Position numbers and translations under genes: made by a program. A DNA stretch of 64,000 nucleotides from Pararhodobacter sp. SW119 (GTDB lineage Bacteria > Pseudomonadota > Alphaproteobacteria > Rhodobacterales > Rhodobacteraceae): contig NZ_JADDJF010000013.1 in the NCBI RefSeq assembly GCF_017811755.1, forward strand, positions 1 to 64,000. Reading direction: 5' to 3'. Below are positions 5,310-63,715 of the stretch, piece after piece. Each line of letters begins with the position of its first letter. The stretch's first letter is position 1. The notes under the pieces are model-generated. The model saw only the letters and a program-made list of their open reading frames with translations, made no database searches and was not told where the DNA came from.

Positions 5310-5386
5310 AGGGGGGCGCAGCCCCCCTCTTCGGCGGTGCCGAATTCACCCCCAGGGATATTTGCGGACAGAAAATGGGGGCGGGG
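5310..5386. repeat. Rhodobacterales-type dispersed intergenic repeat
   Basis: An 8-bp perfect inverted repeat (AGGGGGGC at 5310-5317 and its complement at 5321-5328, three-base loop) is followed after about 20 bases by CCCCCAGGGATATTTGCGGA and a run of Gs. This combination resembles a high-copy intergenic sequence I know from Rhodobacteraceae genomes. Only one copy is seen here, between era and DUF1491. Confidence 0.5.
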
Positions 5387-9633: not shown

Positions 9634-9742
9634 GCGCTCCCCCGAAGATTGTCCGCCCCCGTTCTGGCGCGGCGATGCAGCGAAGTCAAGGAAGCGGGGC
9701 GGGATGGCGCGGGCACGGGGCGCGGGGGCCGAAGCGGCGGCC

Positions 9743-9816
9743 TGCTCAAGCTTGAGCAATCGAGCAAGGCATTGAAATCCATATGTTAGGCGTAACAATT
9801 TTACCGGATCTTAACC
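9743..9816 (+). repeat. Composite palindrome/TTAACC element, copy b
   Basis: TGCTCAAGCTTGAGCA (9743-9758) is a perfect 16-bp palindrome. CAAG at 9765-9768 is 17.5 bp from its centre, and TTAACC starts at 9811, 60.5 bp from the centre: exactly the geometry of copy a. It lies between the topA stop and the scoA start, so reading minus it precedes scoA. Confidence 0.6.
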
Positions 9817-34394: not shown

Positions 34395-34443
34395 GTTTTT
34401 ACCGACCGTCCGCACCGGCCTGGACTGGCGCCCGCACCGGGGG

Positions 34444-34514
34444 TGTGCGCATGCGCTCAGGATCGCAAGCTATGATGCTGAACGAGAAATCGGCGCCGTT
34501 AACCGCAACGAAAC
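34444..34514 (+). repeat. Composite palindrome/TTAACC element, copy d
   Basis: The palindrome at 34444-34459 has core GCGCATGCGC (34447-34456) with one mismatched pair outside it. CAAG at 34466-34469 is 17.5 bp from the centre and TTAACC starts at 34499 (47.5 bp). The 18-mer CGTTAACCGCAACGAAAC at 34497-34514 is identical, inverted, to 51595-51612. It lies between degP and rarA. Confidence 0.65.
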
Positions 34515-34621
34515 CTTTGCGCGGCGTCGCGCCGGGGCGGTCGACGGCGATCGTCGCCCGGTGCGAAGGCCGTTTCCGCGGGCCTCGCAACCGTCTATGA
34601 TCACGCGCGAGGTGACCCCGC

Positions 34622-43586: not shown

Positions 43587-43649
43587 GGTTAATTTTTTCG
43601 CGCTTGTGCTGCGATATCAACGACTTGCTTGATTGTCCAAATTTGGACG
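43587..43649 (-). repeat. Composite palindrome/TTAACC element, copy e
   Basis: GTCCAAATTTGGAC (43635-43648) is a perfect palindrome; CTTG at 43624-43627 is 17.5 bp from its centre. GGTTAA at 43587-43592 (TTAACC on the minus strand) is 49.5 bp away. It lies between convergent stops at 43491 and 43702 and runs opposite to copies a-d. Confidence 0.6.
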
Positions 43650-43701
43650 CTCGCCCCGGAAGGGGTCCCCGGGGCGGAATCGGCGCCCGCCAGCGCCGGG
43701 G

Positions 43702-48622: not shown

Positions 48623-50014
48623 TCAGGCCAGCCGACCCCAGAGGTCGTATTCGCCCGCCTCCTCGACCTCGACGGTGACGATGTCGCCGGGCGACAATCC
48701 GTCGAAGCCCTCGTCGATGAAGAGGTTGCCGTCGATCTCGGGCGCGTCGGCCTGCGTGCGGCAGGTCGCGCCCTCGGCGTCGACGGCGTCCACGATCACC
48801 GGCATCCGCCGGCCGACCTTCGCCGCCAGCTTCGCCGCGGAAATCGCCTGCGCGCGTTCCATGAACCGGTCCCAGCGGTCCTGCTTCACTTCGTCCGGCA
48901 CATGGTCGGGCAGGGCGTTCGACCGGGCGCCGGCGACGTTCTCGTACTTGAAGCACCCCACGCGGTCCAATTGCGCTTCGTCCAGCCAGTCGAGCAGCGT
49001 CTGGAACTCCTCCTCCGTCTCGCCGGGATAGCCGACGATGAAGGTCGAGCGCAGGGTGATCTCGGGGCAGACGGCGCGCCAGCGGGCGATCTCGTCCAGC
49101 GTCTTCGCGCCGGCGGCGGGCCGGGCCATGCGCTTCAACACCTCCGGATGGGCGTGCTGGAACGGAATGTCGAGGTAGGGCAGCACCAACCTTTCGGCCA
49201 TCAGCGGGATCAGGTCGCGCACATGCGGATAGGGATAGACGTAATGCAGCCGAACCCAGGCACCCAGGCTGCCCAGATCGCGCGCGAGGTCGGTGATATG
49301 CGCGCGGTGGCCGCGATCCTCGGCGTGCCGGATATCCACCCCGTAGGCCGAGGTGTCCTGGCTGATCACCAGCAACTCCTTCACCCCGGCCGCGACCAGC
49401 TTCTCGGCCTCGCGCAGCACCGCATGCGCGGGGCGGCTGACCAGTTTGCCGCGCATGTCGGGGATGATGCAGAAGCGGCACTTGTGATTGCAGCCTTCCG
49501 AGATCTTCAGGTAGCTGTAATGCCGCGGCGTCAGCTTCACGCCCGTCGCCGGCAGCAGGTCCACGAACGGGTCGGGCGCGGGCGGCACCGCGACATGCAC
49601 GGCGTCGAGCACGCGCTCGTACTGGTGCGGCCCGGTCACCGCCAGCACCTTGGGATGCGCGCCGGTGATGTACTCGGGCTCGGCCCCCAGGCAGCCGGTG
49701 ACGATGACGCGGCCGTTTTCCTGCAGCGCCTCGCCGATCGCCTCCAGGCTCTCGGCCTTGGCGCTGTCCAGAAACCCGCAGGTGTTGACGATCACGGCGT
49801 CGGCGCCGGCATAGTCGGGGCTGATCGCGTAGCCCTCGGCGCGCAGGCGGGTCAGGATGCGCTCGCTGTCGACCAGCGCCTTGGGGCAGCCCAGGCTGAC
49901 CATCCCGATGGTCGGCTGGCCCTGGCGGGCGGCCGGCGCCGGCGCGCGCAGGCGCGCGGGCGGGGCCAGGTCGGGGCGGGTGCCCGAATTCAGAAGCGGC
50001 GGCGATTGGGTCAT
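48623..50014 (-). CDS. rimO: Ribosomal protein S12 methylthiotransferase RimO
   Basis: A 463-residue radical-SAM enzyme. The N-terminal domain has three cysteines ([30 protein letters not shown]), the radical-SAM motif is [15 protein letters not shown] and a C-terminal TRAM domain ends EYDLWGRL. It methylthiolates Asp of ribosomal protein S12. Starts at 50014 and 50023 are both possible. Confidence 0.96.
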
Positions 50015-50143
50015 GGCGGGCATATAAAGCCGCGCGCGCGGCGGGGGAAGGGGCAGCACAACGAAGCGGCAAGGCTTTGGCGCTATCTTGAACGCCCTGC
50101 GCCACCGGTTATTTACACTGTGAAGCAACTTCCTGGGGCCGCC

Positions 50144-50590
50144 ATGATCCGCTACGCCTTACGCTGCGACCAAGGCCATGATTTCGAAAGCTGGTTCGCC
50201 TCGGCCGCGGCCTATGACGGGCTCAAGGCGCAGGGGCATGTGGCCTGCGCGGTCTGCGGCAGCGGATCGGTGGAAAAGGCGCTGATGGCACCCGCCGTGT
50301 CGCCGGCGGCGACCCCGCCCACCCCAAGGGCGGCGGCGAAACCCCCGGCACTGCCCGCCCCACCCGATGCGGCGCTGGCGGCAAAGATCGCGGCGCTGCG
50401 CAAGCATATCGAGGCCAGTTCGGACTATGTCGGGCTGAACTTTGCCGCGCAGGCGCGCGCGATGCATCTGGGCGACGCACCCGAGCGTCCGATCCACGGC
50501 GAGGCGAAGATCGACGAGGCCCGCGCCCTGATCGACGAGGGCGTGCCGGTCGCCCCCCTGCCGTTCCTGCCGCGCAACCGGACGAACTGA
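50144..50590 (+). CDS. DUF1178 family protein
   Basis: A 148-residue protein with an N-terminal zinc-ribbon-like part ([13 protein letters not shown]...[14 protein letters not shown]), a Pro/Ala linker and a C-terminal stretch [21 protein letters not shown] typical of DUF1178. Function unknown. The C-terminal coding end and the following 120 bases have a degenerate second copy at 51459-51668. Confidence 0.9.
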
Positions 50591-50710
50591 CCGCGAACGC
50601 GGCCGGGAAAGGCCCCTTGTCGCGCAGAAACCGAAAGCTTCGTTGTGGTTAACGGCGGCGGTTTCTTATTTTCAATCAGGGGCTTGCGAGAGCGTGCAAA
50701 TTTGCACGCC
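50489..50710 (+). repeat. Direct repeat, copy A (3' end of DUF1178 plus downstream element f)
   Basis: It aligns with 51459-51668 over its whole length: GATCCACGGCGAGGCGAAGA against GCTCCACGGCGAAGCGAAGA at the start, and GCTTCGTTGTGGTTAACG against GTTTCGTTGCGGTTAACG near the end. The offset falls from 970 to 958 bases, so copy B has lost about 12 bases. Copies A and B bracket the gene at 50735-51313. Confidence 0.75.
50647..50709 (-). repeat. Composite palindrome/TTAACC element, copy f
   Basis: GCGTGCAAATTTGCACGC (50692-50709) is a perfect 18-bp palindrome; CTTG at 50683-50686 is 17.5 bp from its centre and GGTTAA at 50647-50652 is 48.5 bp away. It lies between convergent stops at 50590 and 50735. 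Confidence 0.65.
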
Positions 50711-50734
50711 CGCCCCCGGCGCGGTTCTCGCGCC

Positions 50735-51313
50735 CTACCAGGGCTTGGGAACCCAGGAATAGTTTGCGGCGACGATGGCGTTGACGCTTTTCTTGTAGTT
50801 CGTCTCCGCGGTCGTCTGCGCCGCGCCCTTCGACATTCCCGCGCTGAATTCGTCCATCGCGAAAAGCGAGAAGCACCAGGCCAGAACCACGGCCTCGCCC
50901 TTGTCCAGCTTCTCCTTGATCAGCTCGCGCAGCCGGCCGGTCGTGCGCGCGTCATTCTTCTCGTAAAGGTCCAGCATTTCCACATTGAAGCCGGACTTCT
51001 TCAGCCCGTCGACGATCTTCGCATCCTCCTTCTTGTGCTCGATGTCGTAGACCCGCTTTTTCAGGAAGGTCCCGTCGTCCTTCAGCGGATTGCCCGTCGC
51101 CTCGCCATGCCGGCCGGTGAACACCCAGACCTTCTTGCCCGACGACAGGTCCTTCGCCAGCGGGCCGTACGAGTTCTCGCCGGTGATGCAGATCGACATG
51201 TAGAGGTTTCCGACCTTGACCCAGGGCACGTCACCGTCGTTGATCGTATCCTTTGAAAAAAGCGTGTTTCCGTGGTGCTCGGCGCTGCTTGCGTCGTTGT
51301 AGGGGATGATCAC
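50735..51313 (-). CDS. Unrecognised 192-residue protein
   Basis: I do not recognise this gene. From GTG at 51313 it encodes a soluble, lysine-rich protein with no signal or membrane segment. Visible features are KKVWVFTGRHGEATGNPLKD, VDGLKKSGFNVEMLDLYEK and GEAVVLAWCFSLFAMDEFS, which suggest a Rossmann-like alternation of strands and helices; a pair of cysteines (Cys in SICITGE and AWCFS) is too sparse for a metal site. The tail is YSWVPKPW. Base use is less GC-rich than its neighbours, and the gene is bracketed by direct repeats carrying elements f and g. That suggests acquisition by insertion with duplication. The reading frame continues far upstream, but without plausible protein sequence. 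Confidence 0.7.
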   Translation of the reverse strand: MIIPYNDASSAEHHGNTLFSKDTINDGDVPWVKVGNLYMSICITGENSYGPLAKDLSSGKKVWVFTGRHGEATGNPLKDDGTFLKKRVYDIEHKKEDAKIVDGLKKSGFNVEMLDLYEKNDARTTGRLRELIKEKLDKGEAVVLAWCFSLFAMDEFSAGMSKGAAQTTAETNYKKSVNAIVAANYSWVPKPW

Positions 51314-51458
51314 GGGCCAATCCTCCAGCCGGCGCACCCGCGTCGGGGTGCAGGGAACCACAGCCTGCCGCGACCGCGCGACTCGATCAAGTCTGTTTTG
51401 TCCGGCATTTGCGCCTTCGGTTAACCAACATCGCGCCGCCAGGAAGCCGCCCGCGCGC

Positions 51459-51668
51459 CCGCTCCACGGCGAAGCGAAGATCGGAAAGGCCCGCGCCCCG
51501 ATCGGGAAAGGCGCCCCGCCGTTCCCGCGGCGCATCCACACGAACAGACCTCGAAGGCGGCCACGGGCGACCCCATCACGCGCTGAAACCAAAAGTTTCG
51601 TTGCGGTTAACGCGCGCGAAAATCTATTAGAAAACAGATGCCTGGCGAAGTGCTCAAATTTGAGCACC
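51459..51668 (+). repeat. Direct repeat, copy B (decayed DUF1178 end plus element g)
   Basis: A degenerate copy of 50489-50710. In the plus frame it still reads LHGEAKIGKARAPIGKG against [17 protein letters not shown] of DUF1178, then loses frame. It occupies most of the 502-base gap between the unknown gene (start 51313) and lysC (51816). The rest of that gap, 51314-51458, holds a TTAACC at 51421 without a matching palindrome and no gene I can support. Confidence 0.75.
51605..51667 (-). repeat. Composite palindrome/TTAACC element, copy g
   Basis: GTGCTCAAATTTGAGCAC (51650-51667) is a perfect 18-bp palindrome. At the CTTG position it reads CCTG (51641-51644). GGTTAA at 51605-51610 is 48.5 bp from the centre. 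The 18-mer at 51595-51612 is identical to the inverted one of copy d. It lies about 150 bases before lysC, in a divergent gap. Confidence 0.65.
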
Positions 51669-51815
51669 CCACGGAAACCACGTCTTCGCGCGCCACAGCC
51701 ACGGCGTCCCCGATACCGCCGCCGACCCGCCGCGCCGCGTTTCGCGCTCTTGCGTGACCGCCGCCACGCCAGTAAGAGGGCGCGCATCGGGCAGGACCGG
51801 ACGGTCGGGGGCAAG

Positions 51816-53078
51816 ATGCCGCTACTGGTGATGAAATTCGGCGGCACCTCGGTCGCCGATCTGGACCGGATCGCGAACGCGGCCGGCAAGGTCGCGCGCG
51901 AAGTGGAGCGCGGCTACGACGTGATCGTCATCGTCTCCGCCATGGCCGGCAAGACCAACGAGCTGGTCCGCTGGGTCGAGTCGACCTCGCCCTTCTTCGA
52001 TGCCCGCGAATACGACGCCGTGGTGGCCAGCGGCGAGAACGTCACCGCCGGGCTGATGGCGCTGCGCCTGCAGGAACTGGGCGTGCCGGCGCGCAGCTGG
52101 CAGGGCTGGCAGGTGCCGATCCTGACCACCAGCGCGCACAGCGCCGCGCGCTTCGTCGACATCCCCCGCGACAACATCGACGCCAAATTCGCCGAAGGCA
52201 TGCGCGTCGCGGTGGTCGCCGGCTTCCAGGGCCTCAGCCCGGAAAACCGGATTACCACGCTAGGTCGCGGCGGGTCGGACACCACCGCCGTCGCCTTCGC
52301 CGCCGCCTTCGGGGCCGAACGCTGCGACATCTACACCGACGTCGACGGCATCTACACGACCGATCCGCGCATCACCTCGAAGGCGCGCAAGCTGACCCGG
52401 ATCAGCTTCGAGGAGATGCTGGAGCTTGCCAGCCTGGGCGCCAAGGTCCTGCAGACCCGCTCGGTCGAGCTGGCGATGCGCTACAAGGTGCGGCTGCGGG
52501 TGCTGTCGTCCTTCGACGACACGGATGAAACGTCGGGAACGCTCGTCTGCGACGAGGAGGAAATCATGGAATCAAAAGTCGTCTCGGGCGTCGCCCATTC
52601 GCGGGATGAGGCGAAGATCACGCTCTTCACCATCGAGGACCGCCCCGGCATCGCCGCCTCGATCTTCGGCGCGCTGGCCGAGGCCGGGGTGAACGTCGAC
52701 ATGATCGTGCAGAACATCTCGGAAAAGGACTACGACGACGAACACCCGGGCGCGGTCACCGACATGACCTTTTCCTGCCCGGTCGACCAGGTGCCGCGCG
52801 CCCGCAAGGCGCTGGAGGCGGCGCTGGAGCGCAACCTGATCAAGTATGACGAACTGATCATCGACACCGAGGTCGCCAAGGTCTCGATCGTCGGCATCGG
52901 CATGCGCAGCCAGGCCGGCGTCGCCGCGCGCATGTTCGAGGCACTCGCCGCCGAAGGCATCAACATCAAGGTCATTGCAACCTCCGAGATAAAGATCTCG
53001 GTCATGATCGACCGGAAATACATGGAACTCGCCGTGCAGACGCTGCATGATGCCTTCGAGCTGGAGAAGGCGGGCTGA
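51816..53078 (+). CDS. lysC: Aspartate kinase
   Basis: A 420-residue enzyme: kinase domain LLVMKFGGTSVADLDRIANAA, LGRGGSDTTAVAFAAAFGA and DIYTDVDGIYTTDPRI, then two ACT domains (from about 265: LFTIEDRPGIAASIFGALAEAGVNVDMI split over two halves) that bind lysine or threonine. It starts the aspartate pathway to Lys, Thr and Met. The frame extends about 170 codons upstream but that part is the decayed direct repeat; ATG at 51816 gives family length. ptsP follows after 33 bases. Confidence 0.97.
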   Translation: MPLLVMKFGGTSVADLDRIANAAGKVAREVERGYDVIVIVSAMAGKTNELVRWVESTSPFFDAREYDAVVASGENVTAGLMALRLQELGVPARSWQGWQVPILTTSAHSAARFVDIPRDNIDAKFAEGMRVAVVAGFQGLSPENRITTLGRGGSDTTAVAFAAAFGAERCDIYTDVDGIYTTDPRITSKARKLTRISFEEMLELASLGAKVLQTRSVELAMRYKVRLRVLSSFDDTDETSGTLVCDEEEIMESKVVSGVAHSRDEAKITLFTIEDRPGIAASIFGALAEAGVNVDMIVQNISEKDYDDEHPGAVTDMTFSCPVDQVPRARKALEAALERNLIKYDELIIDTEVAKVSIVGIGMRSQAGVAARMFEALAAEGINIKVIATSEIKISVMIDRKYMELAVQTLHDAFELEKAG

Positions 53079-63329: not shown

Positions 63330-63396
63330 ATGCCCGCCCCCTCCAGAATGAGACCCGCCAGAGGCGGTATGGTCTCATTCTGGAGGGGGCGGGCAT
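63330..63396 (+). other. Long hairpin sequestering the tnpA ribosome-binding site
   Basis: A perfect 26-bp stem: 63330-63355 with 63371-63396, and a 15-base apical loop holding a further small CCGCC/GGCGG helix. The 3' arm contains GGAGGGGG and the first two bases of the tnpA ATG, so translation should be blocked while the stem is folded. IS200 elements are known for such 5' structures. Confidence 0.85.
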
Positions 63397-63715
63397 GACC
63401 GCATACGACACTGGCGCAAACACGGTATTCTACCATCGGTATCACATCGTCTGGGCGACGAAATACCGCTACAAGGTTCTCGATGGCGATCGTCGACGGC
63501 GCATTCGTGACATCATCCGCCAGATGGTGCAGCGGATGAAGGGACGCTCGTCGCACAACGTCCAGCGCGAGTTTCCCGCCCTCGGCAAGCGCTACTGGGG
63601 CCGGCATTTTTGGGCGCGCGGCTTTTTCTGCTCGACCGCCGGCAACATCACGGAAGACCTCGTACTTCAGTACCTCGAAGAGCACGGCCGCGACGCTACC
63701 GGCGCCAGCCGGTAG
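63395..63715 (+). pseudogene. tnpA: IS200/IS605-family transposase TnpA, internally deleted in frame
   Basis: The 106-residue frame begins NTVFYHRYHIVWATKYRYKV and ends KGRSSHNVQREFPALGKRYWG, FWARGFFCSTAGNITEDLVLQYLEEH, as in Y1 transposases of about 140-150 residues. Between RDIIRQ and RMKGRSS about 35-40 residues are missing, including the HUH (DHVH) metal-binding motif. The nucleophilic tyrosine (in VLQYLEE) remains. The frame is intact, but the enzyme should be catalytically dead. Confidence 0.85.
63696..63715 (+). mobile_element. Right-end hairpin of the IS200-type element
   Basis: CTACCGG (63696-63702), loop CGCCAG, CCGGTAG (63709-63715): a perfect 7-bp hairpin covering the last codons and stop of tnpA, like the subterminal hairpins recognised by Y1 transposases. 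With the 5' hairpin it marks the element as about 63330-63725; the exact ends are unsure. Confidence 0.6.

What the first reader, a model, noticed from the sequence alone, without database searches (positions are those of the whole stretch)
50489..51668. Unknown gene bracketed by ~210-bp degenerate direct repeats
The end of DUF1178 plus its downstream element (50489-50710) recurs as a decayed copy at 51459-51668, offset 970 falling to 958 bases. Even the peptide HGEAKI survives in copy B. The unrecognised, less GC-rich gene 50735-51313 lies exactly between. This is what an insertion with tandem duplication, or recombination between element copies, would leave. The composite element may be the recombination site.
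Basis: seen in the sequence. Interest (0 to 1): 0.62.

Follow-up and report, generated by a model that had tools for sequence, protein, structure and literature searches.

The report
Lineage-specific DNA element at gene ends
The two repeats are real: a decayed second copy of a gene's tail plus an 80-base DNA element flanks an apparently gained gene of unknown function, and the element proves to be one of well over a hundred copies that sit just behind genes, mostly where two genes point at each other, most of them ending in a perfect palindrome whose letters differ from copy to copy.

Summary
Confirmed: 50480-50713 recurs at 51450-51671 (score 134; best of 1921 random segments 34), offset 970 then 958, with an orphan gene between. 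Two sister genomes have about 100 bp between DUF1178 and lysC: no gene, no repeat. The DUF1178 tail in copy B is a decayed duplicate (outgroups side with A at 16 of 17 sites). Gain with duplication is supported. But the short allele lacks both elements, and the element halves are no more alike than random family members, so the element as recombination site is not supported.

The element is the real find: about 79 bp, 149 matches in this genome (lower bound), common in the two sisters, nearly absent elsewhere. It has a 23-bp box, an IHF-like site and, 46 bp after the box, a palindrome that covaries through its centre. It occupies 20 of 38 convergent gaps of at least 90 bp, 8 of 103 tandem, 1 of 56 divergent (the one is copy B); the palindrome faces a stop codon in 29 of 33 sampled copies. 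I read it as a duplex-DNA gene-end boundary resembling REP/BIME elements; function is inferred, not shown.

The parts
50144..50590 (+). DUF1178 gene (intact)
   Evidence: PF06676 E=8.6e-50
50480..50590 (+). Repeat A, coding part: last ~110 bp of DUF1178
   Evidence: 0.82 gapped identity to 51450-51548; G014 and G008 agree with A at 16 of 17 informative sites
50632..50713 (+). Element copy A, full model length
   Evidence: model R1, 84.6 bits, E=1.6e-22 in the 464-kb sample
50632..50654 (+). Box of copy A (core TTTC... starts at 50638 with one mismatch)
   Evidence: logo positions -6 to 16
50674..50686 (+). IHF-like site AATCAGGGGCTTG, exact to WATCARNNNNTTR (consensus recalled from memory)
   Evidence: sequence; family count
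50692..50709 (.). Palindrome of copy A, GCGTGCAAATTTGCACGC
50735..51313 (-). Gene X, 192 aa, unknown function; 21 bases separate its stop codon from the end of element A
   Evidence: ORF, (start placed at 51313 by comparison with L060); one relative, 62% identity, L060; nothing above cut-off in Pfam, NCBIfam, PHROGs
51450..51548 (+). Repeat B, decayed DUF1178 tail with a 12-base loss
51590..51671 (+). Element copy B, upstream of lysC; the only copy seen in a divergent gap in either survey
   Evidence: model R1, 75.4 bits
51650..51667 (.). Palindrome of copy B, GTGCTCAAATTTGAGCAC
51750..51778 (+). lysC promoter-like TTGCGT-17-TAAGAG, matched by TTGCAC-17-TATGAG in G014
   Evidence: by eye; not tested
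51816..53078 (+). lysC (aspartate kinase)
   Evidence: PF00696 and ACT domains
34439..34519 (-). Another full element copy in the window
   Evidence: 66.1 bits
26812..26887 (-). Diverged element copy
   Evidence: 31.9 bits
4806..4882 (-). Diverged element copy
   Evidence: 30.2 bits

Best explanation
Two layers. (1) The locus. In the lineage of this genome, an element came to lie between DUF1178 and lysC; then a piece carrying gene X arrived and the end of DUF1178 with its element was duplicated, most simply by one crossover with a circular or tandem intermediate that carried 'DUF1178 tail - element - gene X'. Copy B's tail, no longer coding, decayed. (Shown: duplicate, decay, two sister genomes without any of it. 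Inferred: order, timing and crossover.) (2) The element. It is a lineage-specific, dispersed gene-end element, like REP/BIME in habit, that works as duplex DNA. An unknown factor binds the box, IHF bends the DNA between, and a dimer binds the palindrome, forming a complex of fixed geometry just behind a stop codon that ends or separates transcription, above all between convergent genes. (Shown: anatomy, fixed spacing, symmetry through the centre, place. Inferred: IHF, the factors, any effect on transcription.)
For: Locus; gene X absent from the relatives searched (11, 23, 74); the box core starts 48 bases past the DUF1178 end in both copies (offset 958 throughout). Element: 149 of 150 scored candidates match in this genome. 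With the box (at most 1 mismatch) as the only selection, 93 of 120 copies have all 7 inner pairs complementary, 24 have 6, 3 have fewer. Among the 117 with at least 6, pair 2 is kept in 115 (58 expected) and pair 1 in 103 (55 expected), 0 of 1000 shuffles as high. Pairs 1 and 2 cannot form in a hairpin with a loop, which argues for a duplex dyad. Centre at +63 (83) or +64 (11) in 94 of the 97 copies with a palindrome of at least 10, although the spacer sequence varies, which argues for DNA geometry. Gaps of at least 90 bp with an element: convergent 20/38, tandem 8/103, divergent 1/56; Fisher, convergent against the rest, 1.1e-10. In 78 convergent copies the palindrome is nearer its stop than the box in 62 (median 36 against 91 bp, p 3.7e-9). 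Independent of the box, perfect palindromes of 14 or more run at 2.34 per kb in convergent gaps (shuffled 0.12), 0.53 in tandem, 0.30 in divergent; in G017, without the element, 0 in convergent gaps. Neighbouring genes are unrelated enzymes, not a regulon: of 10 tested (of 24 listed), 9 have assorted Pfam families.
Against: No expression or binding data. Exact IHF pattern in only 29 of 120 copies. Boxes with 1-2 mismatches are about as common as exact ones (G000: 112 in all, 54 exact), as in a decaying mobile family. Fast turnover: of 58 fetched G000 copies with at most 2 mismatches, 16 had at least one flank aligned to a fetched G014 or G008 element locus (some one-sided or reversed; most G008 and inexact copies were not fetched, so this is a lower bound). 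The terminator test was uninformative (2 of 40 convergent gene ends with the element, 2 of 32 without). In tandem gaps the orientation bias is not significant (19 against 12, p=0.28). Gene calls come from my own codon-usage script, and the sampled stretches were picked by hand.
Confidence: 0.47

Rival explanations
1. Mobile REP-like or MITE-like repeat without host function. It spreads by an unknown transposase and is merely tolerated between convergent genes, where it harms no promoter.
For: In the genomes searched, essentially restricted to three related ones; smooth series of box mismatches; fast turnover; absence from promoter regions is what selection against harmful insertions would leave.
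Against: Tolerance alone does not explain why the palindrome lies nearer a stop codon than the box does (62 of 78), nor the rigid spacing and the symmetry. The ends are not inverted repeats of each other. No intact Y1 transposase seen: one internally deleted frame and one fragment at a contig start in G000, none in G014 and G008, which are incomplete; other transposase types were not searched.
Confidence: 0.3
2. RNA-level gene-end hairpin (terminator or mRNA stabiliser) with covarying stem.
For: A palindrome a median 36 bp after a stop codon is where terminator hairpins sit; the arms covary (on copies already chosen for a palindrome).
Against: Symmetry reaches pairs 1 and 2, which cannot form in a hairpin; almost no G-U pairs at pairs 1-7, and G-U extension at pairs 10-12 on the minus strand is not above expectation; at best a weak stretch of 2-3 T on one strand beside the palindrome; no Rfam match in 50000-52000.
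Confidence: 0.13
3. The perfect symmetry is a mutational product (template switching that corrects imperfect palindromes), not selection for a dimer site.
For: Such correction is described (start of the abstracts of PMC3820800 and PMC7202029, listing; passage in PMC6060812). It would explain symmetric change through the centre.
Against: Pairs 4 and 7 are almost invariant and the variable pairs draw on few types, so the half-site sequence is constrained; symmetry fades after pair 8 or 9.
Confidence: 0.1

Closest known systems
REP/BIME elements of enterobacteria (PMC2817692, passages read)
   Same: More than 100 intergenic copies, a palindrome, an IHF-interacting stretch in BIME-1, a reported role in transcription termination
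   Different: REPs are imperfect palindromes of rather fixed sequence (many GTAG/GTGG-headed) with an associated tyrosine transposase; here the palindrome is loopless, varies and covaries, stands at a fixed distance from an unrelated box, and no intact transposase of that type was seen
Spaced motif pairs near 3' ends (PMC5217627, section 13 read), e.g. GCTTAT(N)5AAGCG in Acidovorax ebreus (44 convergent, 4 divergent, 59 co-oriented)
   Same: Dispersed, intergenic, rare in divergent gaps, function unknown
   Different: Other sequences and organisms; no covarying dyad and no IHF-like site reported in that section
Intrinsic (bidirectional) terminators
   Same: Position just behind stop codons and between convergent genes
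   Different: No proper T-run, symmetry through the centre, conserved box 46 bp away
Haemophilus uptake sequences paired as terminators (passage in PMC5217627)
   Same: A genome-wide repeat placed at gene ends
   Different: There a fixed 9-bp word pairs with itself; here box and palindrome are different sequences and the palindrome varies

Membership tests
REP/BIME with RAYT | Many dispersed intergenic copies containing a palindrome | tested here: met
   149 of 150 scored candidates in G000; palindrome of 12 or more in 92 of 119 exact-box copies
REP/BIME with RAYT | Imperfect palindrome, often with GTAG/GTGG-type head | tested here: not met
   Mostly perfect loopless dyad and an unrelated box
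REP/BIME with RAYT | REP-associated Y1 tyrosine transposase in the genome | tested here: not met
   PF01797: one internally deleted frame and one contig-start fragment in G000, none in G014 or G008; all three are drafts, two incomplete
REP/BIME with RAYT | IHF site in the element | tested here: inconclusive
   Exact WATCARNNNNTTR in 29 of 120 (24 at one position, 5 one base on), looser core somewhere in the spacer in 103 of 120, exact in 3 of 2400 shuffled spacers; binding not tested
Intrinsic terminator | GC-rich hairpin followed by a T-run | tested here: not met
   At best 2-3 T on one strand in the logo; script test 2 of 40 convergent gene ends with the element
Intrinsic terminator | Ends transcription | not testable with these tools
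   No transcript data
MITE | Terminal inverted repeats | tested here: not met
   Box end and palindrome end are different sequences
MITE | Target-site duplication | not tested
   Intergenic DNA of the sister genomes is too diverged to align at the junctions seen
Integron cassette (gene plus attC) | Integrase gene and an array of gene-attC units | not tested
   Considered because gene X is followed by an element; sampled copies lie behind unrelated genes; no integrase search made

The most novel reading that the evidence does not exclude
A bacterial gene-end insulator working as duplex DNA: a box factor, an IHF-induced bend and dimeric proteins (one tolerant or several paralogous) that read a combinatorial half-site code (GTCC, GTGC, GCTC, GCGC or GCAC joined mostly to AAA, GCA, ACG or AAG), taking the place of classical terminators at about half of the wider convergent gaps of one small lineage, with unrelated analogous families doing the same in neighbouring lineages.
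Probability: 0.2. Interest if true: 0.78.

Novelty: new variant of a known kind. Interest (0 to 1): 0.52.

Why it matters
How bacteria without obvious T-tailed terminators keep convergent genes apart is poorly known (my general knowledge). A gene-end element with rigid spacing and a palindrome that changes letters but keeps its symmetry, at 20 of 38 sampled convergent gaps of at least 90 bp and confined to one lineage, gives a directly testable system for protein-based gene boundaries and for how palindromes co-evolve. The locus also shows how such copies can mark where genes have been gained.

Tried and rejected
Rfam search of 50000-52000: nothing up to E=1. Gene X: Pfam, PHROGs and NCBIfam give nothing above cut-off (weak Pfam HEM4 E=0.012), PDB sequences one meaningless hit at E=2.2, no match in plasmids or phages, no relative in viral contigs. 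Its AlphaFold model from two sequences is poor (mean pLDDT 56) and Foldseek gave no PDB match at E<=0.001, so I give no function; the RHGE..N stretch recalls histidine phosphatases (from memory) but no family model supports this. Box pattern in viral contigs: 7 contigs with one hit each, not followed. Integron cassette, Tus/Ter, dif, telomere-resolvase, promoter and CtrA-site readings were considered from memory and dropped without a dedicated test: copies do not stand in arrays, are too many, and lie at 3' ends. The terminator test was uninformative. My first flank comparison used gapped alignments that inflate chance identity and was redone without gaps. Literature: seven answered searches listed no paper that, from title and abstract start, describes this element; the library lacks most subscription papers, so this is weak evidence of novelty.

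Full report
What was checked. The repeat is real and a little longer than reported: A 50480-50713, B 51450-51671. Local alignment scores 134; 1921 random segments of the window reach 34 at most. Identity falls to background on both sides (0.20 left; 0.45 then 0.29 right). Between the copies, on the minus strand, lies gene X (192 aa, GC 0.597 against 0.671 for the window).

Two different things are repeated. The first ~110 bp are the 3' end of DUF1178. In copy B this is a decayed, non-coding duplicate: of 17 sites where A and B differ and G014 and G008 agree, the outgroups side with A at 16. This is partly expected because A is still coding, but it shows which copy decayed. The next 41 bp are also homologous (0.707 ungapped; mean of 1540 pairs 0.322). 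The last ~80 bp are a dispersed element; there A and B are no more alike than any two copies in the genome (0.633, mean 0.604, 676 of 1485 pairs as high). The distance from DUF1178 end to box core is 48 bases in both copies, so the whole composite was probably duplicated, but the element part is not evidence by itself.

Relatives. Gene X has no relative in the other 39 of 40 relatives, 294 of 295 family genomes, 384 of 385 class genomes, plasmids or phages. A scan for close relatives in GTDB species genomes gave one, 62% identical, in an uncultured Rhodobacteraceae contig with other neighbours. In G014 and G008, whose DUF1178 is 81% and 80% identical, DUF1178 and lysC are about 100 bp apart, with a lysC promoter-like pair close behind the DUF1178 stop (by eye) and neither gene X nor element there. 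In the 18 relatives whose interval I extracted (21 loci show both genes) it runs from about 100 to about 950 bp. Five genus members (G006, G009, G010, G015, G016) share similar DNA there (blastn) that reads as a small gene; G022 holds a short-chain-dehydrogenase-like frame and G020 an AT-rich frame (by eye, no family search). The interval seems to gain and lose genes repeatedly.

The element. It was found in this genome by similarity, and copies of the box TTTCRTTGYGGTTAACG were counted: 54 exact in G000, 62 in G014, 21 in G008, none in the other 37 of 40 relatives; the reversed control pattern gave 0 in all 40. In 295 family genomes only G000 and G219 (one copy) have it; the control hit once, in another genome. 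With up to two mismatches there are 112, 137 and 48 (controls 0, 0, 1). A covariance model matches 149 of 150 scored candidates in G000, a lower bound because 150 of 1446 first-look candidates were scored; some of the 149 are partial. In 60 relatives it matches G000 77, G014 77, G008 72 (77 scored in each) and one weak place each in G003 and G045.

Anatomy (84 copies; positions from box start): box -6 to 16; A/T-rich stretch from 24; IHF-like site 36 to 48; palindrome centred between 62 and 63. The exact IHF pattern (recalled consensus) occurs in 29 of 120 copies, 24 at one position and 5 one base on (3 of 2400 shuffles). The palindrome's letters differ between copies, yet with the box as the only criterion 93 of 120 have all seven inner pairs complementary, 24 have six and 3 fewer. 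The half-sites are few: GTCC, GTGC, GCTC, GCGC or GCAC followed mostly by AAA, GCA, ACG or AAG. Symmetry includes pair 2 (115 of 117) and pair 1 (103 of 117) (on the 117 copies with at least six of seven). A hairpin needs a loop of about three bases, so such pairs cannot form there; a dimer on duplex DNA, or a mutational copying of one arm to the other, explains them. Spacing from box to centre is 63 or 64 in 94 of 97 copies with a palindrome of at least 10. Of 15 pairs with sister genomes that were aligned, some show symmetric change (for example TCACGCGTGA to GCACGCGTGC), while others contain an imperfect copy. Because both members of each pair were collected by their boxes, the conserved boxes in these pairs prove nothing.

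Place. With my own codon-usage gene caller (not an established one), box-selected copies in three genomes fall into 78 convergent, 31 tandem and 1 divergent gap among the 110 of 123 that could be classified. As a less biased check I took 400 kb of G000 in 20 hand-picked stretches plus the window: 33 elements, 22 convergent, 9 tandem, 1 divergent, 1 at a stretch end; the palindrome faces a stop codon in 29 of 33. Of gaps of at least 90 bp, 20 of 38 convergent, 8 of 103 tandem and 1 of 56 divergent hold one; there are 61 convergent junctions in all, most of the rest narrower. Without using the box or the model, perfect palindromes of at least 14 bases run at 2.34 per kb in convergent gaps against 0.12 in shuffles, 0.53 in tandem and 0.30 in divergent gaps; in G017 there is none in convergent gaps. 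The divergent exception in both surveys is copy B of this finding, which fits its being displaced by the gain of gene X. Copy A lies just behind gene X's stop, the usual place. Neighbouring genes are ordinary and unrelated (of 10 tested, 9 with assorted Pfam families).

Interpretation. I favour a gene-end boundary acting as duplex DNA, because of rigid spacing over variable sequence, symmetry through the centre and the palindrome's closeness to stop codons. Rivals are a tolerated mobile repeat, an RNA hairpin, and mutational palindrome correction. REP/BIME elements are the nearest known kind, but two of their defining features were tested and not met (palindrome type, transposase), so I do not file it as REP. 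Papers: PMC5217627 (passages and section 13), PMC6060812 and PMC2817692 (passages); PMC3820800 and PMC7202029 only as abstract starts in a search listing. No paper on this element appeared in the searches named under Tried and rejected.

A parallel. G017, a genus member without this element, has its own repeat enriched in convergent gaps (AAATATCC in 11 of 29 convergent against 11 of 176 other gaps), in several places as head-to-head pairs around GTTAAC and followed by hairpin-like repeats of varying sequence (by eye). The related pattern GGATATTTNNNGACAGA is found in 28 of 295 family genomes, including 36 copies in G000 (control: one hit in one genome). Lineage-specific gene-end repeats may thus be a wider habit in this family.

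Noticed in passing
window 5356-5372; G017 loci L197-L216; 28 of 295 family genomes: A second dispersed family, GGATATTTNNNGACAGA, patchy across the family; its AAATATCC word is enriched between convergent genes in G017, in several places as inverted pairs around GTTAAC and followed by G-rich hairpin-like repeats of varying sequence.
   Followed up: partly
DUF1178-lysC interval in L011-L027 and L034: The interval looks like a recurrent site of gene gain and loss: about 100 bp in the two sister genomes, similar DNA reading as a small gene in five genus members, other unrelated frames in G019, G020 and G022 (by eye, no family search).
   Followed up: partly
window 63395-63715 (+): IS200/IS605-type Y1 transposase frame lacking about 30 inner residues against PF01797, so probably dead; another fragment at the start of contig C143.
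   Followed up: no
window 9738-9788 (-), 43604-43654 (+); L191, L185, L190, L179: Half elements that match only model positions from about 32 to 82 (IHF-like part plus palindrome) without a recognisable box.
   Followed up: no
G000 C1:41788/41827, C149:138930/138979, C171:12194/12222, C57:77071/77167; G014 C279:5353/5369: Five gaps hold two elements back to back, boxes inward; in the four G000 pairs the two palindromes of a pair differ.
   Followed up: partly
window 51418-51426: CGGTTAACC lies between the start of gene X and copy B; possibly a remnant of another box or part of gene X's promoter.
   Followed up: no
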